Position numbers and translations under genes: made by a program. A stretch of DNA of 64,000 bases, from the NCBI GenBank assembly GCA_000196815.1, contig FP929003.1, positions 2,565,501 to 2,629,500 on the forward strand, written 5' to 3'. Positions 22,474-35,507 of the stretch are shown piece after piece (positions within the stretch are counted from its first letter, which is position 1; every line of letters begins with the position of its first letter). Origin of the DNA: Nitrospira defluvii. GTDB lineage: Bacteria > Nitrospirota > Nitrospiria > Nitrospirales > Nitrospiraceae. The notes below the pieces were generated by a model. The model did not search any database. It had not been told where the DNA came from and saw nothing but the letters and a program-made list of their open reading frames with translations.

Positions 22474-24546
22474 CTATGCGATGGGGAGGATGTCAAAAAT
22501 GGCTGCTCGTTCCACGCGACCGACATCGACCCATTGCTGGGCCAGCGGGATCAGCGTCGCCAATCGTTCTTCCACAGCTGCCAATCGCTCGCGAATCACC
22601 GCCGGTTTGTGCTGAGCCGTGACGCGGAGGAACGTGCGGAGACCATGCAGGAACAGGCTGATATTCGCCGCAGCCACTCGCTCGGCCGCATCGGAGAGCG
22701 CCTCGATTTCGACAAAAATGGGTTCCAACGCCTGGGGTGGAAATACGCGATCCTCACTCGTGAGCGCGACATGCCTGAGCGTGGCGATCACCGCCGGGAT
22801 ATGCGCCTGCATGTGCGCAAGGAATCGCTCATCCAGCTCATCCAACTCCTGCAACAGTCGCCCGATGGCACGCGCATCCAGCACGCCTGCCCCCTGCTGC
22901 ATCTCCTGCTCGGCGCGCTGAATTACGGTATCCAGTACATCGCGCACCGGTTGGAGCGATCGACCTCGCGCTTGATGCAACTGCCGCAAGGCGTCAAGTA
23001 TGGATGCGGCCGGCAACGGGGCGGAAGGCGCGTCATCCGGCATATGAGCCTCAACAGCCGCGGGCACGTCGACGACCACCGGCACAGGAGTTTCAGTCAC
23101 AGGCTGCCGCACAGCTACGGTCGGTTTCGGACTATCTTGTGGAGGACGTTCGACGGCATGAAGGGCCTGCACCGTCTTGCTGATTTCGAGCAACCCCTCC
23201 CGAAGCGACGCCACGTGATGAGCCGCCACGGTGCGCTCATGTTTTGCGGCGGCCTGAAGGAGCGGAAGCATCCGGGTCGCCATGTCTTCCACGGCCGTCA
23301 ACCCGACGGTCGCGGCGGATCGCGCGAGGTTGCTGACGCTCTGCCACAAAATCGTGCTCAACTTGGCGCGGCGTCCCTGTTCACTTGTCGTGTCGAGCCG
23401 CTCGAGCGCCGTCTGGATCTGATTGAGCCATTCACGGGCCTCCAATACAAACAGGCCGAGAATTTCTCGCCGGACATGCGGGCCCTGGTCAGGCGCTTCG
23501 ATGGCCGACTGGACCTGCACAGGCTGCGCGGCTGCCTTGGGTTGCCCCACCGCAGCCTGAATCACGCCGGCGATCGCATCCAGACTTTCGAGCAGCGCGG
23601 CAAACTGATCCGATGCGCTTGTCGGCGTAGCGCGCTCGGCAGCCGTCGGTGCGGTTGCAAACGTGACGCGCTCCAATGCCGGTGAATCGACAGTCTCTGC
23701 GACCGACACCTGAGGCAACTGACTGAGATCGAGGTACCGCGGTGGATCGCTCACCGCGGTCTCCTGTGCGCCGGTCACACGGAGCACCGGACGGGATGGG
23801 TATCGAGGCGTGATTCTCACCACCACACCTTCTTCGCCGCTGCTCAGACGCACCTTGGTGCCCAGCGGGTAGACCGAGAGTTGCTCGACCAATCCTTTCA
23901 TGATTTCACGGGGAAACGCAGTACGCTCCGTGTTCAATAACTCACGGATCGCCTCGTGCGGGAGGAGGCGCCGGCGGTACGGGCGCGGACTGACCAACGC
24001 GTCGAAGATATCGACGAGTCCGATGATCTGCGCCAGCTCATTGATTTCACGCCCCTTCAAACGGTTCGGGTACCCCTGCCCCTTCCCGCGCTCATGGGCC
24101 TGCAATACCACTTCGGCCAACCAGGCATAGTCCGCACCGAGACGTTCGATCACTCCATACCCCAAGCGCGGATGTTGCTCGACCAGAGCCCGTTCATCGG
24201 AGCTCAGGCGGCCGGTCTTCGTCAGCAAGTGCTGCGGCACGGCAAAGATACCGATGTCATGGAGGAGCCCGGCCAACGCCAGACGCCGCAACTCCGCGCC
24301 GTAATAGCCGAGGCCGATCCCGACCTTCGTCGCGAGAATGCTCACATTGACTAGATTGGTAACCAGCGGAGGGCCGACCGGACTGGACAGGGCCTCAACG
24401 ACTAATTGATCGTTTTCCTGAATCGACGCGACGATGGTGCCGGCAAGCTGGGTCAACTCCGTCAGGTTCACCGGTTCCTGCCGTTGCACGGCGGCAGCGA
24501 CCCGCATCAGCGCATCCTCAGCCTGCCGGTAGTGATTCTGCTCCAT
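22474..24546 (-). CDS. Degenerate HD-GYP protein with Hpt-like C-terminal region
   Basis: 690 residues. Residues 55-215 are an HD-GYP fold: LLHDIG (H96-D97), EQHPRLGYGVIERLG, HERGKGQGYPNRLKG (151-165) and LVDIFDALVSPRPYR. Several metal ligands look lost: Asn64 stands where the first His is expected, Ala150 replaces the first His of HHE, and Lys155 replaces the Asp before GxGYP. Residues 358-470 match the Hpt fold of the neighbouring CheA, but the HTLKGSA motif has become SNLARSA, with Ser405 in place of the phospho-accepting His. It is the last gene of the chemosensory operon. A regulatory rather than catalytic role in c-di-GMP signalling is inferred. Confidence 0.75.
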   Translation of the reverse strand: MEQNHYRQAEDALMRVAAAVQRQEPVNLTELTQLAGTIVASIQENDQLVVEALSSPVGPPLVTNLVNVSILATKVGIGLGYYGAELRRLALAGLLHDIGIFAVPQHLLTKTGRLSSDERALVEQHPRLGYGVIERLGADYAWLAEVVLQAHERGKGQGYPNRLKGREINELAQIIGLVDIFDALVSPRPYRRRLLPHEAIRELLNTERTAFPREIMKGLVEQLSVYPLGTKVRLSSGEEGVVVRITPRYPSRPVLRVTGAQETAVSDPPRYLDLSQLPQVSVAETVDSPALERVTFATAPTAAERATPTSASDQFAALLESLDAIAGVIQAAVGQPKAAAQPVQVQSAIEAPDQGPHVRREILGLFVLEAREWLNQIQTALERLDTTSEQGRRAKLSTILWQSVSNLARSAATVGLTAVEDMATRMLPLLQAAAKHERTVAAHHVASLREGLLEISKTVQALHAVERPPQDSPKPTVAVRQPVTETPVPVVVDVPAAVEAHMPDDAPSAPLPAASILDALRQLHQARGRSLQPVRDVLDTVIQRAEQEMQQGAGVLDARAIGRLLQELDELDERFLAHMQAHIPAVIATLRHVALTSEDRVFPPQALEPIFVEIEALSDAAERVAAANISLFLHGLRTFLRVTAQHKPAVIRERLAAVEERLATLIPLAQQWVDVGRVERAAIFDILPIA

Positions 24547-24745
24547 TTCCTCTCAGCCTCCAGCCTCGATGCGCTTCGTCACCCGGCGCGCCGTTGTTTC
24601 CACCTGTGTATGGTCCAATGGTCCAAGTCAGGGGGATCAGCACAGCCATCCGGAATGATTCTCATGGTGGAGATGCGCCGTCAACTCAATGAAGCCTGTC
24701 CGGGAAGTCTTGTCCGAGGCCGGTCGCGCACTGTGAGGAGCGCCC

Positions 24746-25693
24746 TCAGGCGGCAGGCAGCAGCCGGCTCATCAGATCCCGTTCCTGCTGTCCGGCGGTG
24801 ATCCAGTCTTCGATCGTGGTCATCACGGCGAGAATGCGCCCTTCCACGGCCTCGACGCGCTGGGACGCGATCACGATACGGCGCTGGACGATCAAGGCCA
24901 GGAAGCTCTGAAGGCCGGTGAGAAAGGTCACCAGCGGGGTGGCATTGACCTGCTTGGCCATGCCCTGAAGCTGTTCGATCTGCTGCATGCAGGTGCCAAG
25001 CACGTTGTTTGGCTCCAAACCCGTTACCCCCTCGACCCGGAGCCTGCTCAGATTGTGCGCAATGCCGGGCAATGCTTCTCGCAGCGAGTCCAGGCATCGG
25101 GCATCCGTGTTTTGGAGCTCACCCAACAACTGCTGAAACGCAGCCGTCTGTATCCGGCTCTCCCCCTGCCTCGCCTCCTGCTCCAATCGATGCATGACTT
25201 GTGGAATTAAACTGCGGGAAGCGACTCCCTTGGCAACCTGCTCGTCTTGAAGCATGCGAAGCGCGTTCAGGAGCGTGAGGAAATCGATGGCCGGCTCCGG
25301 TTGTAGGGGCGTGTCCTGGACAGGACCAAGGTCCAGCGTGATGCCAGTGGCCATCGTGACGGACGCGATGACGAGACAGAACTGTTCACGGACCGTGCCG
25401 AAATCCTGCTTGGTCGCCGTCGTCCGGTCTTTCAGGGTGTCGATGAAGGGAAGCAGCGCGAAGGTGGCACGTTCGACATCGGGGAGGTTCACCGTGGCGG
25501 CAGAACCACCGAGGCTGGTGATGCCCCTGACCACGGCATCCACCAATTGGGCATGCCGGTCGGTATCAGGCTGGCTTTCCAGCTCGGTCAAGGCGGAATG
25601 GATCTGAATGAGCCACTCTTGCGCCTCCTGACCGAACAGTTCAATCAGTTCTTTTTGAAAATCGTCTTCGGTCTGTTCTGGTTCGGTCGACAC
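24746..25693 (-). CDS. Hpt-like all-helical protein lacking the phospho-accepting His
   Basis: 315 residues, helical, no membrane segments. Residues 13-80 resemble CheA Hpt domains (ELIELFGQEAQEWLIQIHSA; GITSLGGSAATVNL), but the His of HTLKGSA is Thr59. It is paralogous to the C-terminal half of the HD-GYP protein downstream (EAREWLNQIQTALERL versus EAQEWLIQIHSALTEL). It may bind kinase or regulator without transferring phosphate. The family name is unknown to me. It lies 59 bases after the coiled-coil response regulator gene. Confidence 0.6.
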   Translation of the reverse strand: MSTEPEQTEDDFQKELIELFGQEAQEWLIQIHSALTELESQPDTDRHAQLVDAVVRGITSLGGSAATVNLPDVERATFALLPFIDTLKDRTTATKQDFGTVREQFCLVIASVTMATGITLDLGPVQDTPLQPEPAIDFLTLLNALRMLQDEQVAKGVASRSLIPQVMHRLEQEARQGESRIQTAAFQQLLGELQNTDARCLDSLREALPGIAHNLSRLRVEGVTGLEPNNVLGTCMQQIEQLQGMAKQVNATPLVTFLTGLQSFLALIVQRRIVIASQRVEAVEGRILAVMTTIEDWITAGQQERDLMSRLLPAA

Positions 25694-25752: not shown

Positions 25753-27243
25753 CTAGCGTTTGCCATTCCCGAGTTGGGAGGCCAGCCCGGCAATCTCACC
25801 CAGCTTCCTCGCCATATCTTCAAACCGGCGAGTCGACTGCTCCGCCATGTGCTCGGCCTCCATCGCCCGTTTCTCGAGCTGCATCGAACGCTCCTGCTCA
25901 CTGACCAGAGCGAGATCCAACTCACCGACACGCTGCGCCGCCGCCTCCAACTGCTTGACCTGAACCAACAGAGCCGCTGCGGCCTCCCGTTCAGCCGAGA
26001 GCGCCGCGTCGAGCTCAGCGATCTGAGCCTGGGCTTTCGCGCCGGCTTCTTCCAGCGCCGGCACCTTGTCCGCACTGTGTTGCAGCTCGACACGCTCCCG
26101 TCGCTGCAGCTCTGCCTGCTCACGTTCAGCCGCCAGAGTCGTTTCGAGCTCGTGGACGCGCGTTTCGACCTGCTCAAGACCGGTAATTTGCTGTACCAGT
26201 TGATTCGCCGCTTCCCGCTCTGCCTCCAGATGGGCCTCCAATTCCGCAATACGCGCGGCGTGACGGACCCCCTCCGAAACCTGTTGGGACAATTGCTGCG
26301 CACGATGCTGCTCATCGGCGAGAGCCGTCTCCAGCTCGCCGATCCGGAGCATCTGCTTTGACACTTCTTCCAACTGTTCTGCGAGAGCGGTTCGCTGCGC
26401 CCGCTCGTCGGCCAAACTCTGGTCCAATGTTTGTGTGTGGGACGACAGAGCTGCAACCTGCTCGTGCTGCTCATCCAACGCACGCTGGATGTGCGCGATC
26501 TGCTGGGTCTGCTCCAGACTGCGCCGACGCTCCTCGTCCAACTGCGCTTCGAGCTCGCTGATCCGCGTGTCACGTTCCGCCAAAATTGCCTGATGATGCT
26601 CATGATCATGTGCCGGCGGAGCCGGCTCAGCGGCATGGAACGCGGGAGCCGCATCCTCCATGGCGTCGCGGGTCATCATCGCAGGTATGGCATGAGGCTC
26701 TTCAGGACTGATCGTGATCGGCTCGAGCGACGGCCGATGCTCCTGAGCTTCTACATGGGGCGCTGCAATTTCTTCCGGCACAGGCATAGCGGGCACGGCA
26801 CACACCTCTGCCACGAAAGATGACTCCACAGTCGTTTGCGGCTGCGGCATTTCCGGGATCGGAGCAGGTTTTTGTGGGCGCTTTGTAAGCAGATCCAGTA
26901 CACGATCCTTGAGCGAGGAACCCTGAAACGGCTTCTTCAAGACCCCGTCGGCCTTGCACGACTCTGCTTGCCTGGACACTTCCTCGTTCACAATGCCGCT
27001 GATCAGGAGTACGGGGAGATCCGCGAGGTTTGCCTGTCCCCGGATGTACGCACAGACCTCATAACCGCTCTTGTCCGGCATGATGACATCGGACACGATG
27101 AGATCGGGGCGATCCTTACTTAGCAGCGCCAGAGCCTCCGATCCGTTCGCGGCCAGCGTGACCCCCATCCCGGCCTCGGTCAGGAGACGCTCGGCTACCT
27201 TACGGACTGCGATACTGTCGTCGGCAATCAAGATCTTTGGCAT
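25753..27243 (-). CDS. Response regulator with long coiled-coil output
   Basis: 496 residues. Residues 1-125 form a receiver: acidic pair D8-D9, phosphorylation site Asp52 (LIVSDVIMPDKSG), conserved Lys in GVLKKPF. A Pro-rich linker follows (about 128-210). From about 215 to 485 there is an almost uninterrupted Glu/Gln/Ala-rich coiled coil (IAELEAHLEAEREAANQLVQ and many similar heptads). No DNA-binding or enzymatic output is seen. Phosphorylation by the CheA in the operon might control oligomerisation or localisation. That is inference. Confidence 0.8.
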   Translation of the reverse strand: MPKILIADDSIAVRKVAERLLTEAGMGVTLAANGSEALALLSKDRPDLIVSDVIMPDKSGYEVCAYIRGQANLADLPVLLISGIVNEEVSRQAESCKADGVLKKPFQGSSLKDRVLDLLTKRPQKPAPIPEMPQPQTTVESSFVAEVCAVPAMPVPEEIAAPHVEAQEHRPSLEPITISPEEPHAIPAMMTRDAMEDAAPAFHAAEPAPPAHDHEHHQAILAERDTRISELEAQLDEERRRSLEQTQQIAHIQRALDEQHEQVAALSSHTQTLDQSLADERAQRTALAEQLEEVSKQMLRIGELETALADEQHRAQQLSQQVSEGVRHAARIAELEAHLEAEREAANQLVQQITGLEQVETRVHELETTLAAEREQAELQRRERVELQHSADKVPALEEAGAKAQAQIAELDAALSAEREAAAALLVQVKQLEAAAQRVGELDLALVSEQERSMQLEKRAMEAEHMAEQSTRRFEDMARKLGEIAGLASQLGNGKR

Positions 27244-27271: not shown

Positions 27272-27748
27272 TCAAGCGGGACGGTTCGATGAGACCCCCA
27301 AGGTTGTCAGGTTGATGATAGGAAGTTCTTCTTCGCCGGCGATACACGTTCCCGCAATGTCAGGATCGTGACCGACGCGATACTGTACTGCCGAGCGTGC
27401 CACCATGTGCAGCGAAGGAACCTGGGAATCGATGCAGATCGCCAGCGGTCCGTCCACATGTTTGACAACCAGACACAGCGGCTCGCCATCCTGCAGGGGA
27501 CGATTGAACTTCGCCGCCAGGTCGAATACCGGAAGACACCCCTTCTCCTGTCGAACCAGCGCGCACACAAACGGCGTATCGCTGGGAACCGCCGTCGCGC
27601 CCGTCCACGGCATCACTCCGGCGATCTCCTCGGTTCTGGCGGCCAACCGCTGACCGCCCACCGAAAACACCACCATGTGCTGCATCCGCGCCCCGGTCGC
27701 GCCTGTGCTACCTGTGTGCGGTTGTCTGCGTAGCTGAGTACGTAACAT
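27272..27748 (-). CDS. cheW: CheW-type adaptor
   Basis: 158 residues from ATG 27748, with GAGGA 6 bases upstream. The frame is open further upstream, but that part overlaps the preceding gene and lacks CheW features. The CheW fold covers HMVVFSVGGQRLAARTEEIA, FVCALVRQEKGCLPVFDLAA, CLVVKHVDGPLAICID and ELPIINLTTLGV. It links the CheA kinase to the receptor. It is one of three CheW-type genes in the operon, the others at 27765-28337 and 33797-34342. Confidence 0.75.
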   Translation of the reverse strand: MLRTQLRRQPHTGSTGATGARMQHMVVFSVGGQRLAARTEEIAGVMPWTGATAVPSDTPFVCALVRQEKGCLPVFDLAAKFNRPLQDGEPLCLVVKHVDGPLAICIDSQVPSLHMVARSAVQYRVGHDPDIAGTCIAGEEELPIINLTTLGVSSNRPA

Positions 27749-27764
27749 GGTCGATCCTCGTACC

Positions 27765-28337
27765 CTATTTCGCCGATCCGACTGACATCGCCGACGCCGC
27801 TTCCAAGGCTGCCGAAGGCAGGCGGAGTCTGGAATCGAATTCGCCCGGCCGCCGTTCCGACGCCTGAAGGGCAAACACATCCAACACATTGTTCCGGGAC
27901 GGAAGCTCGAGGACCCAAAACGGATTGGCGATGAGCGCGATATACGACGACTCGACAAACAATCCGAGCAATCGTTCCCGCTCCCCTCCTCGAAACTGCG
28001 CAGGGAGCGGCTGGATCAGGGCCCGTTCGACATCGATGAGGCCCACGACCCTGTCCACCGCAAACGACCGCGACCGTTGCTCATTGGCATAGAGCACGAT
28101 CCTGGTCTCAGCCGTGACGCCTTCGGCTTGGATCTTCAAACGACGGGCGAGATCGGCACGTTCGTAGGAAGCATTGGCCCAGGTGACATGCCCGTCCGCC
28201 CCCTCCTCAGCCGGGGTCACAAGGCCGCGAACCCAGTGAGAGGGAAAAGCCATATGCATGGGGCCCATGAGCGTCACGAGAAACCGGACCGCCAACCCGC
28301 TCGACACCACTGCCGTCTTATGTCCGCGGAGCCCCAT
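27765..28337 (-). CDS. Divergent CheW-like protein
   Basis: 190 residues. The pattern FLVTLMGPMHMAFPSHWVRG, ETRIVLYANEQRSRSFAVDR, VVGLIDVERALIQPLPAQFR and SSYIALIANPFWVLEL follows a CheW fold, but sequence is weakly conserved. A C-terminal tail of about 45 residues is extra. It sits between CheA (47 bases upstream) and the more canonical CheW gene (16 bases downstream). It may be a specialised adaptor for this array. Confidence 0.6.
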   Translation of the reverse strand: MGLRGHKTAVVSSGLAVRFLVTLMGPMHMAFPSHWVRGLVTPAEEGADGHVTWANASYERADLARRLKIQAEGVTAETRIVLYANEQRSRSFAVDRVVGLIDVERALIQPLPAQFRGGERERLLGLFVESSYIALIANPFWVLELPSRNNVLDVFALQASERRPGEFDSRLRLPSAALEAASAMSVGSAK

Positions 28338-28384: not shown

Positions 28385-31300
28385 CTATTTCTTCACGACG
28401 CTTTCACGGCCTGTCCACTTGCGGACTTCCTGAATCAAGGCGCGTTCTTCCACCGGCTTGGCAATGTACCCCGAGGCCCCGACACTCACAGCCATCTGGC
28501 GATGCTTTTCCCCCGCCCGCGTGGTCATGACAAGAATCGGGGTGGCCTGAGTCTGAGGCCTGGCGCGAAGCGCCTGAATGACTTCAAAACCGTTCAACTT
28601 CGGCATTTCGAGATCGGTGATGATGAGCTGGTACTGCTGCACCAATGCCTTGCGACAGCCTTCTTCTCCGTCGGTCGCCGTTTCGACGGTATACCCGGCC
28701 GACTCCAGCATCCGTCCGACAAACTTTCTGATGCTGAGCGAGTCATCGATCAACAAGAGCGGAAGCTGCCTATCCGAAATCTGCGGCGACGGGGGCTGCG
28801 CCGGTCCCTCAAGCATCGGCGAAGAACCGGGGTTCTGAATGACCGACATGGCCTCATGGTATTCGCGAGTCGTCAACCGGCTGACGTCAAGAACCAGCAC
28901 GACACGCCCCTCGGGATCGATAGTCGCACCACCGAACACGGACCGCTCATACGGCTTCAGGCCGCCCAATGATTTAATGACGATTTCCTGCCGGCCCAGC
29001 AATTCATCAACCGCGCAACCGAGCGCGCCGGTCGAGGTTCGAACAACGACCACAGGAGTCGCCCCGTCGATGGTGCCGGCATCCCGTCGAATGAGGCTGC
29101 CGAGCGGATACACTTCAATGGCTTCGTCGCCGATCTGCAGCACCGACCGATCCCCCATCTGCTGAATCGTCGACGCAGTGGACATCGTGACCTCGCGCAC
29201 ACTGGGGAGCGGAATCGCGTAGCGCTCTTTCCCGACCCGAACGAGCAGTGCGGTTGCGATCAGCAGGGTGAGGGGCAAATGCATCGTGAACTTGGTGCCC
29301 TGCCCGTAGACCGATTCCACTTCGATGTGGCCGTTCATCGTCTCGATGACTCGCTTGACCACATCCATGCCGACGCCGCGTCCGGCCTGATCCCCGACCG
29401 CTTCGGCGGTGGAAAATCCCGGCAGGAAGATGAACTTGATGACCTCGCTCTCCGGCAGTGAGTCCGCGACATCCGCTCGCACGAGACCCAGCTTGACCGC
29501 CTTGGCCTTGATCTTGGCGATATCCAGTCCCGCCCCGTCGTCCTCGACTTCGATCAGCACCGAGTTCCCTCGATGCGCGGCGTGGAGATAGACCGTGCCG
29601 GCCGCCGGCTTCCCTTGGCTGCGACGGACACCCGCGGGCTCGATCCCGTGGTACACCGCATTTCTGACCAGATGGACAAGCGGATCGACAAGCCGCTCCA
29701 CGACACCGGTGTCGATTTCCGTATGTTCGCCGGACGTGACCAAATTGACTTCTTTTCCGGTGGCACGGGCCATCTCACGGGCCGCGCGACGGAAGCGCGT
29801 GAACGGCGTCCCGATCGGCACCATGCGGGCGCGCGCAATCTCATCACGCATACCCAAGGTCAACTGTTGCAGCGACCCCATGTCATCCTGGGCGCGATGG
29901 ATCGACCCGCTGAGCTGCGACATGGATTCGGTAATGTCCGCGGTGACTTCGCTGATTCGCCGGGCCAGGATGTTGAAGTCGTCGTACTTGTCGAACTCCA
30001 GGCTGCCGAAATCGCTGACGCCCGGATACGCCTGTGGCGTGTCCTCGCCGGAGGACGCGGGAGAGGGTTGGAAGGAAAAGGTGTGCTTGTCTTCGAACGT
30101 GCGCACGGCGTCGGTCAACCGGTTCTTGTTGGCCAAGACCTGTGTGGCCAACTGATCCAACGTGCGGAGCCTCTGCTCCAGCCGTCCGCGATCGATCACC
30201 AATTCACCGACCAGATTGAGGAGGCGTTCCAAACGATCACGGCTGACCCGGATCACCTCTCGCTCTTCGCCGGTTTTTCCATCGACGCCTTTGGCCGATT
30301 CCTGCCCCTCGGCTTCGCGAATTTCTTCCACTGAGGCGCCATCGGCAATCGAGGAGACGAGGGGGTGATTCTGGTCCGGTGCCGACTGAGTCTCTCCCAG
30401 TCGTTTCAACTCCTGCAAGGAGTTCGAAAACCGCTGCCTCGTCCGGCCCACCATGGACAAATCCCGTCGCATCAAGGCGCGAATGACATCGATGGCGCGC
30501 AGCAGCACATCCGTATGACCCGGAAGCAGTTCCAGTTGCCCTTCCCGAACGGCGCCCATGAAATCTTCGATGTGATGAGTCAGATCACCGATCGCCTGAA
30601 AGCCTACGGTATACGCCGAGCCTTTCAACGTATGGGCGGTGCGGAACAGTTGGTGGATTGTGTCGGGATTGCCCGCGTCCTTATCGACACGCAGCAAGTC
30701 GGCTTCGAGGCTTTCCAAATACTCCTGCGCCTCCGGCGCGAAATAGGACATCACCTCAGAATCGAGGGCCGGGATCAAATAGGCCTCGGAGAGCTCGCCG
30801 GTGTCCGCCTCGCCCATGGAGTGCCCGACGGAATCGTGATCGGATGGGACCGCAGGCACGGATTCCTGGATCGACGTCTCTTCAGGCCGGCTCAGCGCAG
30901 TGGCAGCCGCTCCAGGCTCACCCTGACTCACGCCCTGCCCCAATTCTCCGAGCATCGTCCTGATACGAGGCACCTCCTGACGCAAGCGGGCCAATGATTG
31001 AGCGTCCCGCGCCATCAGGGAACGGATCACGTCCACCGCCTTCCGCAGAACGGCGATCCAATGCGGCGCGACCGTCACAACGCCCTCACGAACGGCAATC
31101 ATGCAGGATTCGATCGGATGGGCGACATCTCCCACGACTTCAAATCCCACGGTATAGGCCGACCCTTTGAGCGTGTGTGCCACCCGATACAATTGATGAA
31201 TCGTGTCGGCATTCGCCAGGTCGGATTCCAACCGTTGGAGCAGGGTCTGAATCGTGCTGAGGTATTCTTCTGCCTCCGGCGAGAAGTAGGAGAGCACCTC

Positions 31301-31774
31301 TTGGTCCAGGACAGGAATGAGGTACTCATCCGCCGGCTGATCGAAACGCTGCACAGACGCGGCCGACGAGTCGCTTGAAACGGCCGGCAGCAAGTCGGAG
31401 TGGCGCCGGACGAATCCCTCAACCACCGAGGCCTCTTCCCCTCCCCCACGCCCGATCTGCTCGACCTGCCCTCGAAAGGACGCGGCAATTTCGCGCATCA
31501 GTTGCATGGCTTCGGGCCAGCGCGCCGCCGGAATCTCCTGCACGCGTTCGAGTGTATCTTCGAGTAAGGCCCCGAGTTGCCCGAGCCCCGGGAACCCGTA
31601 GAGAAGCGCGGCGCCTTTGAGCTTGTGGCCGACTGTGTGAAATTCGGCGACGTCGGCCGGTTCCGGATGCGCCTTCCCATCTGGATGCAAGGCTTTCCAG
31701 AAGCGCCCCATATCGTCGCCGGCCTCGGCCACGAAAATATCCAGCAACTGGTCGCGATCGAAATCAGCGCTCAT
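28385..31774 (-). CDS. cheA: Hybrid CheA histidine kinase with three Hpt domains and a receiver
   Basis: 1129 residues. Three Hpt domains carry His50 (GHKLKGAAL), His200 (HTLKGSAYTVGF) and His381 (HTLKGSAYTVGF). A dimerisation region is at about 505-640 (RVSRDRLERLLNLVGELVID). The ATPase domain is at about 650-830 (LVHLVRNAVYHGIEP, VEDDGAGLD, GRGVGMDVVKRVIE). A CheW-like domain covers about 830-970. A C-terminal receiver starts LLLIDDSLSIRK with the site in IITDLEMPKLNG. The multi-Hpt and receiver layout is that of ChpA/FrzE-type kinases in non-flagellar chemosensory systems. It is the core kinase of this operon. Confidence 0.93.
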   Translation of the reverse strand: MSADFDRDQLLDIFVAEAGDDMGRFWKALHPDGKAHPEPADVAEFHTVGHKLKGAALLYGFPGLGQLGALLEDTLERVQEIPAARWPEAMQLMREIAASFRGQVEQIGRGGGEEASVVEGFVRRHSDLLPAVSSDSSAASVQRFDQPADEYLIPVLDQEVLSYFSPEAEEYLSTIQTLLQRLESDLANADTIHQLYRVAHTLKGSAYTVGFEVVGDVAHPIESCMIAVREGVVTVAPHWIAVLRKAVDVIRSLMARDAQSLARLRQEVPRIRTMLGELGQGVSQGEPGAAATALSRPEETSIQESVPAVPSDHDSVGHSMGEADTGELSEAYLIPALDSEVMSYFAPEAQEYLESLEADLLRVDKDAGNPDTIHQLFRTAHTLKGSAYTVGFQAIGDLTHHIEDFMGAVREGQLELLPGHTDVLLRAIDVIRALMRRDLSMVGRTRQRFSNSLQELKRLGETQSAPDQNHPLVSSIADGASVEEIREAEGQESAKGVDGKTGEEREVIRVSRDRLERLLNLVGELVIDRGRLEQRLRTLDQLATQVLANKNRLTDAVRTFEDKHTFSFQPSPASSGEDTPQAYPGVSDFGSLEFDKYDDFNILARRISEVTADITESMSQLSGSIHRAQDDMGSLQQLTLGMRDEIARARMVPIGTPFTRFRRAAREMARATGKEVNLVTSGEHTEIDTGVVERLVDPLVHLVRNAVYHGIEPAGVRRSQGKPAAGTVYLHAAHRGNSVLIEVEDDGAGLDIAKIKAKAVKLGLVRADVADSLPESEVIKFIFLPGFSTAEAVGDQAGRGVGMDVVKRVIETMNGHIEVESVYGQGTKFTMHLPLTLLIATALLVRVGKERYAIPLPSVREVTMSTASTIQQMGDRSVLQIGDEAIEVYPLGSLIRRDAGTIDGATPVVVVRTSTGALGCAVDELLGRQEIVIKSLGGLKPYERSVFGGATIDPEGRVVLVLDVSRLTTREYHEAMSVIQNPGSSPMLEGPAQPPSPQISDRQLPLLLIDDSLSIRKFVGRMLESAGYTVETATDGEEGCRKALVQQYQLIITDLEMPKLNGFEVIQALRARPQTQATPILVMTTRAGEKHRQMAVSVGASGYIAKPVEERALIQEVRKWTGRESVVKK

Positions 31775-31826: not shown

Positions 31827-33701
31827 TTACGCGAGCTTGAACTGAGCGACCGAAGAGTTGAGACCTTCGGCCAGTTTTGCCATATCTTCGATCGTGAGTC
31901 GCGTCGAGTCCGTCTGCTTTTGCGTCGCCACGGCACCGCCGGTGAACTCCTTAATGGCTCGACCGACTTTTTCCGTTGAAGCGGTCTGTTCGGACGCCGC
32001 GCTCGCGATGTTCTGGGCCAACTCGGAAGACCGTTTCGCAATGTCTGAAATTTCAGCGAACACGTCGCCGGTCCGGAGCGCCGAAGCGGATCCGGCTTCC
32101 ACCGCCTGCGTTTCGTGCTCCATGGCCACCACGGCATCCTGAGTCTCGGTTTGAATCACTTTCACGAGGTCGGCGATCTCACGTGTGGCTTGCGTGGAAC
32201 TTTCCGCCAGCTTTCTGACCTGGTCGGCGACGACGGCGAATCGGGCGCCGGCCTCACCCGCGCCGGCCGCCTCGATGGCGGCATTGAGCGCGAGCAGGTT
32301 CGTTTGATTGGCGATATCGCGAATCGTCGACACGATTTGCGAAATTTCGAGTGACCGGTCACCGAGGCCTTTCACCTGCTTGGACATACGTTGCACCGCC
32401 GACCGGATACTCTGCATGTCACGCACGGTTTCCTGCACCGCGACGTTGCCGCGTTCCGTGGCCGACAGCACCTGCTTCGCGGAGTCGGACGATGCGCCGG
32501 CCGTGGTGGCCACTTGACGCATACCGGCGGCCAACTGTTCGACCGCGCCCAGCGTGCGTACCGATTCTTCCGCCTGCGCCCGGGCCGTGCCGGACATATG
32601 ACCGGCTGAATCCCGAAGGGTCCCGGCCGACTTGTTCACGCGGTCGGCCGCCTCGCGCACCTGCTTCAACAGTTGTCCGAATCGCGCGATCATCAGGTTG
32701 AATCCGTCCGCAAGGTTACCGAACATGTCGGCCGTCACTTCGCCTCGCCGGGTCAAGTCTCCTTTACCGACTTCGGACACCAGCACGAGGAATTGCATGA
32801 GCCGTTTTTGCATCAGGTCGCGCTCTTCCTCCGTCGACACCAGGACGGTAATACGATCGAGCATGGAGTTGAATGCAGTGGCCATCTGGCCCAACTCATC
32901 GTGTGACTGGATTTTCGCGCGGGCCTGTAGATTGCCGCCGGCGGCCTGCGTCGCGACATTGGCGATGTGGCTGATGCTCCGGGAGAGGAATGTCGCCAGC
33001 AGATATCCGACGAACAATCCGAGGGCCACGGCGACGAGACCGCCGGCCACCAGAATCAGGGTACCGTTGTTGGCCAGGCCTTGCGCATCATCGTTGAGGT
33101 CCTTGGCGACGGCCTCAATGGCCGTGACCTGCTCGTTATGGCGTTTGACGGCATTTTCGAACGAGGGCGTCAGGTTGACCGTCAGGGCCAGGATACCGAG
33201 GGCCCGCATTTGCTCCGCTTGCGTGGAAGACAGGACGTTGCGATCGAAACTATCCGCCATGGCGCTCAGGGCGCCGTCGGCATCCTGGAAGTATTTCTTC
33301 AAGGCCGGTTCAAAGAGGGTCAGATCCTTCGCCTCGTCCCGGCCCGACCGCGATACACGCAGCGTCGTGCTCCTATAGTTATTCACCACCTTGTCGATCT
33401 GGGCTTTCAAGGGCGGCAACTTGGTCACTTCCTGGGCGAAGTCGGCTTGTTTGGTGGCGGACGCGACATCCAGCAGAATCTGGTGGTGTTTGGTCAACGC
33501 GGTTCCCATCTGGGCGAACTCAGCCAACGGCACCGTATAGTCCGCATACACCGTTTGCGACTGCGTGCTGAGTTGGCGCAGGGTAAACACACCGACGCTG
33601 GCCATGATCATGATGATGACACTCACGAGACCGAAACTGACCAGCAGCTTCGTCTTTGTTTTCATGTCCTGGAATTGATTCTTGACGCCTTGCCCGATCA
33701 T
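31827..33701 (-). CDS. Methyl-accepting chemotaxis protein
   Basis: 624 residues. First membrane helix at about 17-38 ([19 protein letters not shown]), periplasmic four-helix-bundle sensor to about 212, second membrane helix at about 213-240 ([20 protein letters not shown]), then HAMP, and a signalling domain whose hairpin tip reads [20 protein letters not shown] followed by [16 protein letters not shown]. It is the only receptor in the operon. Its methylation enzymes CheR and CheB are not encoded nearby. It lies 52 bases before cheA. Confidence 0.92.
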
Positions 33702-33796: not shown

Positions 33797-34342
33797 TTAC
33801 GCGATCGACAATATCGCACTCCCTCCGTCAATCTGTGCAAAGACCTGCGGCACCTCCAGCACTCCCCCCAGACGTTCGTCCAGACGAAGTACTGCCGAGA
33901 CACAAGGACGCGCCCCCGCCGGTCCCGCTTGCATGGCCGGCAGCAGGTGCTCACGACTGACGGTGTGAATTTCAGGAACGTGATCGACGAGCACTCCCAC
34001 CTGTCGGCTGCCATGGCGAATCACGACCGCGAACGGCAGCGCGGTTCCGGTCACGGACAGCCCCAGGCTTCCTCGCAGATCAACCAGGGTAATGACCGTT
34101 CCCCGGAGATTGGTGACTCCGGTCAACAGGCTCGGCATGCTGGGCACGACGGTCACCGCTTCCACCTCAAACACTTCACTGACGTGGCGGAGATCAATGG
34201 CGAACAACTCGCCCCCCAGCGTGAGGACACACATACGGAGCGTGCCGTCGATCGACGCGGCAGAAGACCTCGATGGGCTGGAGGGTCCGTGAGCCGGAGA
34301 TGAGTCCGAGGAGTGAGGCTGGATCGTTGGCACGTCGTTCAT
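33797..34342 (-). CDS. cheW: CheW-type adaptor
   Basis: 181 residues. A Ser/Pro-rich leader of about 30 residues precedes a canonical CheW fold: MCVLTLGGELFAIDLRHVSE, LLTGVTNLRGTVITLVDLRG, GVLVDHVPEIHTV. The last strands are VLRLDERLGGVLEVPQVFA. It is the most typical of the three CheW proteins here and lies 3 bases after the response regulator gene, just before the receptor. Confidence 0.88.
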   Translation of the reverse strand: MNDVPTIQPHSSDSSPAHGPSSPSRSSAASIDGTLRMCVLTLGGELFAIDLRHVSEVFEVEAVTVVPSMPSLLTGVTNLRGTVITLVDLRGSLGLSVTGTALPFAVVIRHGSRQVGVLVDHVPEIHTVSREHLLPAMQAGPAGARPCVSAVLRLDERLGGVLEVPQVFAQIDGGSAILSIA

Positions 34343-34345
34343 GGG

Positions 34346-34708
34346 TTAATTCAACGCCCGCTTGACTGCGGCGACCAGATCTTCGGCTTTAAACGGCTTC
34401 ACCACATACCCATTGGCCCCCTGCTGTTGGCCCCAGAATTTGTCGCTTTCCTGTCCCTTGGAGGTGCAGAGGACGATCGGGATGCCCTTGAAGCGCTCAT
34501 CACTTTTCAGGTCACGGCAGGCCTGGAACCCGTTACGCCCGGGCATCACGACATCCAGCACGATCAGGTCCGGCTTGTCCAACGCCAGTTTGTCCTCGAG
34601 TTTGTCGGTGTTCGGATACGACACGACTGTGTGATTGGCAGACTTCAAATAGCCTTCGATCAACTGCAGTTCGGCGTACGAATCATCGACGACAACGATC
34701 TTGCTCAT
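34346..34708 (-). CDS. Single-domain response regulator (CheY/PilH-like)
   Basis: 120 residues, receiver only: acidic DD at positions 8-9 (VVVDDSYAE), phosphorylation Asp in LIVLDVVMPGRNG, Thr/Ser in LCTSKGQESDKFW, Lys in VVKPF. The SKGQESDKFWGQQQGA stretch is typical of PilH/PilG-type regulators of twitching chemosensory systems. It is likely phosphorylated by the CheA of the operon. Its gene is 64 bases downstream of the heme-sensor gene. Confidence 0.88.
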   Translation of the reverse strand: MSKIVVVDDSYAELQLIEGYLKSANHTVVSYPNTDKLEDKLALDKPDLIVLDVVMPGRNGFQACRDLKSDERFKGIPIVLCTSKGQESDKFWGQQQGANGYVVKPFKAEDLVAAVKRALN

Positions 34709-34772: not shown

Positions 34773-35507
34773 CTACCGCATGGGAATCACGATGCTGATC
34801 GCACCGGCCAGATCGCCCTCATGCCATCCTTCTTTTTTGGCGCCGGTGATGTCACGTTCGCCTTTCGGGTCGCCATGGCAGCTCAGACAGGTGCTTGCGG
34901 CATACTCCGGATCCATCATGCGCAGTACCGGCTTCCCGTCCAACATCGTGGCCTTGCTGTACGGCTGGCCTTTCGGATGGCGGGTGTCGGCAAAAATCCT
35001 CAACACTTCCGACTCAAACTCATCAGGCCGGTTGCCCGGAAACCGATAGTCGGTGCCCGTGAGCTTCACACGAATTCCGGTTTTCCGATAGAACCGCTCG
35101 CCGGACTTGCGGGCGAAGACGGCAGGGATAACCCCTTTGAACCCCACACCTTGCTTATTGATGACGGGCTGCATCTCGTCGATGACTTCTTTTTCGGATT
35201 CCACCATGGCGAGATAGAGCGGCGCTTGCGGAACCGTGGCGGGCCGGCTCAGATCGATCTTGGTGGCTTTGCGAAACCGTTCGATCACCTGATTGGATAC
35301 AAAGTCACCGGTAAACCCTTTGTCGCCCTTACTGGCGTCATTGATTGTGGCCTGGTGTTCGGAAATCACCCCACGGCCGACTTGCAACAACTTGATGAGC
35401 AACTCGGCCGTTTCCACCTCGGTATTGGCCGACGCGGGAGTCGCCGCGCCCATGCAGGTTGCGGTCAGTGCAGCCATCACGATTCTTTGAATGATATGTT
35501 TTGCCAT
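34773..35507 (-). CDS. Secreted heme-binding sensor protein (Tll0287/DUF3365-like)
   Basis: 244 residues. Signal peptide with likely cleavage after ATPASA (about 27). The body matches Tll0287-like/DUF3365 domains (PAVFARKSGERFYRKTGIRV, DFVSNQVIERFRKAT), ending with a c-heme motif CLSCHGDPKGERD (C207, C210, H211) and GDLAGAISIVIPM. These domains are usually the periplasmic part of sensor kinases or receptors. Here the domain is a separate soluble protein encoded first in a chemosensory operon, so it may be a redox or ligand sensor for the receptor at 31827-33701. Confidence 0.8.
   Translation of the reverse strand: MAKHIIQRIVMAALTATCMGAATPASANTEVETAELLIKLLQVGRGVISEHQATINDASKGDKGFTGDFVSNQVIERFRKATKIDLSRPATVPQAPLYLAMVESEKEVIDEMQPVINKQGVGFKGVIPAVFARKSGERFYRKTGIRVKLTGTDYRFPGNRPDEFESEVLRIFADTRHPKGQPYSKATMLDGKPVLRMMDPEYAASTCLSCHGDPKGERDITGAKKEGWHEGDLAGAISIVIPMR

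What the first reader, a model, noticed from the sequence alone, without database searches (positions are those of the whole stretch)
22474..25693. Two Hpt-like proteins without the phospho-histidine, one fused to a degenerate HD-GYP domain
Seen: the HTLKGSA motif intact in the operon's CheA becomes SNLARSA (Ser405) and TSLGGSA (Thr59). The HD-GYP part keeps HD and GYP but has Asn64, Ala150 and Lys155 where metal-binding or signature residues are expected. Inference: pseudo-phosphotransfer domains that may bind CheA or receivers as decoys or scaffolds, linking the array to a catalytically impaired c-di-GMP module. I do not know a described system built this way.
Basis: partly seen in the sequence, partly recalled or inferred. 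Interest (0 to 1): 0.65.

Follow-up and report, generated by a model that had tools for sequence, protein, structure and literature searches.

The report
Two dead relay domains, conserved in Nitrospira
A chemosensory gene cluster in Nitrospira bacteria carries two relay-type proteins that have lost the residue that carries phosphate, one of them joined to an enzyme domain that has lost its catalytic residues but kept its likely signal-binding ones, and this has been kept across the family, so both probably work as docking or sensing parts rather than as enzymes.

Summary
The 315-aa and 690-aa proteins carry Hpt-fold domains with Thr59 and Ser405 where His should be, and the HD-GYP part has Asn64 and Ala150 at two metal-ligand positions. 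All four Hpt active-site residues (His, Lys+3, His+19, Glu+22) are gone. The HD-GYP also lacks the counterparts of D183, E185 and K225. The losses are ancestral: 0 of 122 Hpt-like domains in 80 named loci (nearly all Nitrospirota) have His, and 76 of 76 HD-GYP copies share the H189, K225 and H276 losses. It is not decay: the pseudo-Hpt is about as conserved as the CheA Hpts, and the c-di-GMP recognition residues are invariant. Best reading: FimL-like receiver-docking proteins of a Chp/Tfp-like operon, one fused to a DvhD-like non-hydrolytic c-di-GMP sensor. Each half has a precedent (FimL and non-His Xpt domains of ChpA; DvhD). I found none for the fusion, in a library limited to open papers. 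The HD-GYP seems to have arrived paired with an XrtA/ExeA-type ATPase that this genome has lost. Binding to receivers or c-di-GMP is inferred, not shown. New variant of a known kind.

The parts
22474..24546 (-). 690-aa protein (P0001): degenerate HD-GYP + pseudo-Hpt + C-terminal helical domain
23923..24351 (-). HD-GYP core (residues 66-208 as matched by Pfam HD_5). N64 (codon just upstream), I100, A150 replace H189, K225, H276 of PmGH; G58/P60 replace D183/E185; H96, D97, H125, H151, D179, GYP kept; Y159, R188, Y190, R191, E207 (nucleotide recognition) invariant
   Evidence: PMC4159591, PMC13090378
23155..23478 (-). pseudo-Hpt of P0001 (residues 357-464), Ser405 at 23332-23334 in place of His
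   Evidence: on CheA P1 1tqg: Z 15.0, rmsd 2.2, 103 aligned
22477..23001 (-). C-terminal helical domain of P0001 (516-690), homologous to the C-terminal part of P0002; no Pfam or NCBIfam family found
24746..25693 (-). 315-aa protein (P0002): pseudo-Hpt + C-terminal helical domain
25343..25663 (-). pseudo-Hpt of P0002 (residues 11-117), Thr59 at 25517-25519 in place of His
   Evidence: on 1tqg: Z 13.3, rmsd 2.4, 104 aligned
24549..24745 (-). short gap where many relatives encode an XrtA/ExeA-type AAA ATPase (absent here)
25753..27243 (-). receiver domain + long coiled coil (RECcc); directly precedes P0002; candidate docking partner
27272..27748 (-). CheW-like protein (region; start codon not fixed)
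27765..28337 (-). divergent CheW-like protein
28385..31774 (-). CheA: three Hpt (His50, His200, His381), dimerisation, ATPase, CheW, receiver
31827..33701 (-). methyl-accepting chemotaxis protein (4HB-HAMP-MCPsignal)
33797..34342 (-). CheW
34346..34708 (-). CheY-like single-domain receiver
34773..35507 (-). Tll0287-like protein heading the operon in many relatives

Best explanation
The two proteins are conserved non-catalytic parts of a Chp/Tfp-like chemosensory operon. P0002 is a pseudo-Hpt docking protein that works like FimL: it holds a receiver (most likely the adjacent REC-coiled-coil protein or CheY) near the array without taking or giving phosphate. P0001 is a second copy of it, joined to an HD-GYP that most likely cannot hydrolyse c-di-GMP but still binds it, so that c-di-GMP level changes dimerisation or docking and is fed into the chemosensory output (type IV pili and/or exopolysaccharide). 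Shown here: folds, missing catalytic residues, retained recognition residues, conservation, duplication, operon context. Inferred: loss of activity, c-di-GMP binding, receiver binding, output.
For: Hpt fold. Hpt active-site quartet absent in all 122 domains of 80 loci, with 0 His at the acceptor site (T 92, S 10, N 8, A 6, M 4, G 2). Pseudo-Hpt entropy 0.86 bits against 1.31/1.08/0.60 for the three CheA Hpts in the same loci and 1.86 for its own C-terminal domain. In PmGH, alanine at H189, H276 or K225 essentially abolishes activity (PMC4159591); all three are replaced in 76 of 76 HD-GYP copies, while Y159, R188, Y190, R191 and E207 are 29/29. Of the genome's other HD-GYP copies, the five aligned keep H189, H276 and H277. 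Operon order conserved. Precedents: FimL has Gln at both sites, interacts with PilG and FimV and helps hold PilG at the pole (PMC3019171, PMC10519157); non-His Xpt domains of ChpA are not phosphorylated in vitro (PMC10782961); DvhD binds c-di-GMP without hydrolysis (PMC13090378). PilT/PilU-family ATPase present in the genome.
Against: No interaction or binding was measured. P0001 keeps five metal ligands (H96, D97, H125, H151, D179), more than DvhD, so some metal binding or residual activity is possible. In the fused pseudo-Hpt the Gly+4 of the HxxKG motif is Lys/Arg in 40 of 42, which may hinder receiver docking. The pseudo-Hpt tail was lost in one clade that keeps the HD-GYP, so the fusion is not essential everywhere. 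No output is known for this operon.
Confidence: 0.5

Rival explanations
1. Decoy/antagonist: the pseudo-Hpts compete with CheA's Hpts for receivers and damp the phosphorelay, as plant pseudo-HPts are thought to do.
For: Same Hpt fold and intact second half of the motif; pseudo-HPts are a recognised class in plants (mechanism recalled).
Against: Extra C-terminal domain, HD-GYP fusion and constant presence with the operon fit a structural part better; Gly+4 lost in the fused copy.
Confidence: 0.15
2. The HD-GYP is a pure protein-interaction module (for example with GGDEF proteins or PilZ) and binds no nucleotide.
For: Catalytic residues lost; the RpfG GYP motif is reported to mediate GGDEF complexes (discussed in PMC4159591).
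Against: Residues equivalent to PmGH R314/K317/Y285 and DvhD Y652/E668 are invariant in 29 of 29 fused copies.
Confidence: 0.15
3. The HD-GYP is still a phosphodiesterase, with a rearranged mono- or di-metal site or another cyclic dinucleotide as substrate.
For: H96, D97, H125, H151, D179, D182 and GYP invariant; paralogues have Glu at the H276 position, a possible ligand.
Against: Positions where PmGH alanine mutants lose activity (H189, H276, K225, D183) are all replaced (PMC4159591); Ala/Val at H276 cannot bind metal.
Confidence: 0.12
4. Thr/Ser phosphotransfer (histidine, threonine and serine 'Xpt' domains as named in ChpA).
For: T or S at most sites (102 of 122).
Against: A, M, N and G also occur in intact orthologues; Lys+3, His+19, Glu+22 gone; ChpA non-His Xpt domains unphosphorylated in vitro (PMC10782961).
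Confidence: 0.04
5. Decaying duplicates without function.
For: Loss of active-site residues.
Against: Open frames and strong conservation over the family.
Confidence: 0.02

Closest known systems
FimL (Pseudomonas/Acinetobacter Pil-Chp)
   Same: Separate protein with Hpt-like domains lacking His, tied to a multi-Hpt CheA system; holds the receiver PilG at the pole with FimV
   Different: FimL has Gln, is homologous to ChpA's N-terminus and lies outside the main operon; here the gene is in the operon, has Thr/Ser, a single recognised pseudo-Hpt and a further C-terminal domain, and a second copy fused to HD-GYP. Homology to FimL itself was not tested.
Non-His Xpt domains of ChpA and Rhodobacter CheA3
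   Same: Hpt domains with Thr/Ser or otherwise without His in chemosensory systems
   Different: Those are parts of the kinase; these are separate proteins
DvhD (Desulfovibrio vulgaris)
   Same: HD-GYP without key catalytic ligands; matching nucleotide-contact residues
   Different: DvhD is a membrane PAS/HD-GYP receptor of the Dvh adhesin system; it lost HD itself, here HD is kept; no pseudo-Hpt
Bd1817 (Bdellovibrio)
   Same: Closest fold match of the HD-GYP part (Z 21.5); described as inactive in PMC4159591
   Different: Bd1817 lacks the GYP Tyr; no chemosensory context known to me
Plant pseudo-HPts
   Same: Hpt fold without His in a phosphorelay
   Different: Unrelated system

Membership tests
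Hpt domain (fold/family) | Four-helix Hpt fold and family sequence signal | tested here: met
   (41/42 solo members); the 690-aa copy alone is below Pfam's cut-off (16.7 vs 24.6 bits). Designed bundles score alike, so fold alone would not suffice.
Hpt domain (active phosphotransferase) | Phosphorylatable His with Lys+3, His+19, Glu+22 | tested here: not met
   0 of 122 domains have His; quartet absent
HD-GYP domain (fold/family) | HD_5/HD-GYP profile, HD and GYP motifs | tested here: met
   (PmGH 4mcw Z 16.4; DvhD 9rbz Z 15.7)
HD-GYP c-di-GMP phosphodiesterase (active) | Metal ligands H189, H221, D222, H250, H276, H277, D305 and K225/D183 | tested here: not met
   H189, H276, K225, D183, E185 replaced; activity itself not assayed
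Non-hydrolytic HD-GYP c-di-GMP receptor (DvhD-like) | Retained nucleotide-contact residues | tested here: met
   Y159, R188, Y190, R191, E207 in 29/29; the DvhD contact K582 was not mapped with certainty and looks replaced by Ile/Leu
Non-hydrolytic HD-GYP c-di-GMP receptor (DvhD-like) | Binding of c-di-GMP without hydrolysis | not testable with these tools
   needs ITC/DRaCALA and HPLC
FimL | Sequence homology to FimL / ChpA N-terminus | not tested
   FimL sequence was not aligned; no FimL family hit appeared in Pfam or NCBIfam
FimL | Binds the output receiver and a polar hub | not testable with these tools
   needs interaction assays
Tfp/ACF-class chemosensory system | Multi-Hpt CheA with C-terminal receiver | tested here: met
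   about 93% of multi-Hpt CheAs are ACF or Tfp class (PMC10782961). Which of the two, and the output, were not tested.

The most novel reading that the evidence does not exclude
A single protein lets c-di-GMP speak directly to a chemosensory array: a catalytically dead HD-GYP senses c-di-GMP and switches the docking of a phosphate-free Hpt onto CheA or a receiver, a coupling route built wholly from pseudo-enzymes and fixed early in the Nitrospiraceae.
Probability: 0.3. Interest if true: 0.72.

Novelty: new variant of a known kind. Interest (0 to 1): 0.52.

Why it matters
The role of the Hpt domains without His in type IV pilus chemosensory systems is an acknowledged open question (PMC10782961, PMC12632253). 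Here such domains are free-standing, conserved and physically joined to a c-di-GMP-type sensor domain, so docking without phosphotransfer can be tested apart from kinase activity. Nitrospira are key nitrite oxidisers living in flocs and biofilms, and I found no paper in the held library on how they link chemosensing to c-di-GMP.

Tried and rejected
Recent decay: rejected by conservation in 80 loci. Misframe or mispredicted ORF: rejected, open frames in close relatives. His shifted to a neighbouring position: none; H32 in helix A of P0002 is nearly invariant but lies elsewhere and its role is unknown. C-terminal domain of P0002: no Pfam/NCBIfam family; structure matches are unspecific helical bundles and it was not folded alone, so nothing is claimed for it. 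PDB sequence search with the single P0002 sequence gave only weak CheA P1 hits (E 0.14); the profile improved this to 8e-4. No paper found on a Nitrospira Chp-like operon or an Hpt/HD-GYP fusion; absence from an open-licence library is weak evidence. The search for relatives in other phyla used two narrow patterns, so a wider spread is not excluded.

Full report
WHAT IS THERE. The window lies in a 4,317,083-bp single-contig genome whose nearest named relatives are Nitrospira; the size matches Ca. Nitrospira defluvii as I recall it, not verified. On the - strand a chemosensory operon runs Tll0287-like, CheY, CheW, MCP, CheA with three Hpt domains and a C-terminal receiver, two CheW-like proteins, a receiver with a long coiled coil (RECcc), P0002 (315 aa) and P0001 (690 aa), ending against a convergent lpxD-like gene.

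THE OBSERVATION. P0002 matches Pfam Hpt above its cut-off (32.5 bits) and P0001 below it (16.7 bits). The two are homologous over P0002's full length (27%, E 4e-29), so P0001 = HD-GYP + a second copy of P0002. The acceptor position is Thr59 in P0002 and Ser405 in P0001, whereas CheA's Hpt domains keep His50, His200 and His381. In Hpt domains the His works with Lys+3, His+19 and Glu+22 (known for CheA P1; recalled). CheA Hpt2 and Hpt3 have all four; P0002 and P0001 have none.

CONSERVED, NOT DECAYED. I collected 80 loci with named organisms and read every copy. Solo site: T 67, A 6, M 4, S 3. Fused site: T 25, N 8, S 7, G 2. His: none in 122. The rest of the motif (LGGSAA in solo copies, LA[KR]SA in most fused ones) is nearly invariant. 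Over the same genomes (36 rows) mean column entropy is 0.86 bits for the pseudo-Hpt, against 1.31, 1.08 and 0.60 for CheA Hpt1, Hpt2 and Hpt3, and 1.86 for P0002's own C-terminal domain. Early-branching relatives (L084-L087) with a single copy have T or A too, so the His was probably lost before the duplication. A tree puts solo and fused copies in two mirrored clades for nearly all rows (short search, early branches weak).

THE HD-GYP. In 76 of 76 operon copies the equivalents of PmGH H189 and H276 are N and A/V, and K225 is L/I/V, while H221, D222, H250, H277, D305 and GYP are kept. D183 and E185 are also replaced in the fused copies. In PmGH, alanine at H189, H276, K225 or D183 essentially abolishes hydrolysis (PMC4159591). 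The five other HD-GYP proteins of this genome that were aligned keep the H189 and H276/H277 counterparts, so the loss is particular to this copy. Residues that contact the nucleotide are invariant in 29 of 29 fused copies: Y159 (Y285), R188 (R314; DvhD R650), Y190 (DvhD Y652), R191 (K317), E207 (DvhD E668) (contacts from PMC4159591 and PMC13090378; the mapping to DvhD numbers is mine). That is the pattern expected of a binder that does not cut. DvhD, also without key metal ligands, binds c-di-GMP and does not hydrolyse it (PMC13090378). P0001 keeps more ligands than DvhD, so inactivity is likely but not certain.

STRUCTURE. AlphaFold2 models from locus alignments: P0002 mean pLDDT 86.9, P0001 70.6 with low-confidence linkers at 299-359 and 466-513. 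P0002 11-117 lies on T. maritima CheA P1 (1tqg) at Z 13.3, rmsd 2.4, 104 residues; P0001 357-464 at Z 15.0, rmsd 2.2, 103 residues. Designed four-helix bundles score alike, so the assignment leans on sequence and structure together. P0001's HD part matches Bd1817 (Z 21.5), PmGH (16.4) and DvhD (15.7).

ORIGIN. Outside the Nitrospiraceae two HD-GYP homologues (L205, L206) follow directly on an XrtA/ExeA-type AAA ATPase; in L205 the following genes include polysaccharide-export-like and chain-length/tyrosine-kinase-like proteins as I read the sequences. Paralogous HD-GYPs inside the family (L100, L102, L103, L108) also sit beside this ATPase. In 37 of 76 operon loci an ATPase of this type was found; in the window the space between P0002 and P0001 is about 0.2 kb without an ORF. 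So an ATPase/HD-GYP pair probably joined the operon behind P0002. On the HD-GYP tree the fused form looks ancestral and the pseudo-Hpt tail was lost mainly in one clade of 30 rows.

HOW IT PROBABLY WORKS. FimL of P. aeruginosa has Gln at both Hpt-like sites (PMC3019171), interacts with PilG and FimV and, with ChpA, holds PilG at the pole (PMC10519157); in Acinetobacter it is needed for pilus placement (PMC9596432). Non-His domains of ChpA are not phosphorylated in vitro, their role is open (PMC10782961) and a scaffold role has been proposed (PMC12632253). By analogy P0002 docks a receiver. RECcc is the best candidate because it precedes P0002 in 79 of 80 loci, the exception being a contig that starts about 0.1 kb before P0002. 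P0001 would add c-di-GMP control. The genome has about six GGDEF-bearing ORFs and PilT/PilU-type ATPases, so the signal and a possible output exist. Docking, c-di-GMP binding and output are inferences.

VERDICT. Observation confirmed and extended; interpretation partly supported; each half has a described precedent, the fused arrangement none that I found. New variant of a known kind.

Noticed in passing
window 24549-24745; L205, L206, L088, L159: An XrtA/ExeA-type AAA ATPase gene pairs with this HD-GYP family in and outside the operon (37 of 76 loci, paralogues, EPS-type clusters) and is missing in the window genome.
   Followed up: partly
window 25753-27243: Receiver followed by about 350 residues of coiled coil whose length differs much between relatives; its gene precedes P0002 in 79 of 80 loci.
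   Followed up: partly
window 34773-35507: Tll0287-like gene heads the chemosensory operon in many relatives but was not detected in many loci of the clade with an unfused HD-GYP; possible sensor input.
   Followed up: no
P0002 residue 32 (helix A), window 25598-25600: His32 is nearly invariant in solo pseudo-Hpts though not at the acceptor position; role unknown.
   Followed up: no
L096-L104, L108: Second group of HD-GYP proteins in the family with Asn, Met and Glu at the H189, K225 and H276 positions, also beside the ATPase in several cases.
   Followed up: partly
L130, L121, L182: Records titled Omnitrophota and Nitrosospira carry the Nitrospira operon or part of it; probably mis-binned or mislabelled contigs.
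   Followed up: no
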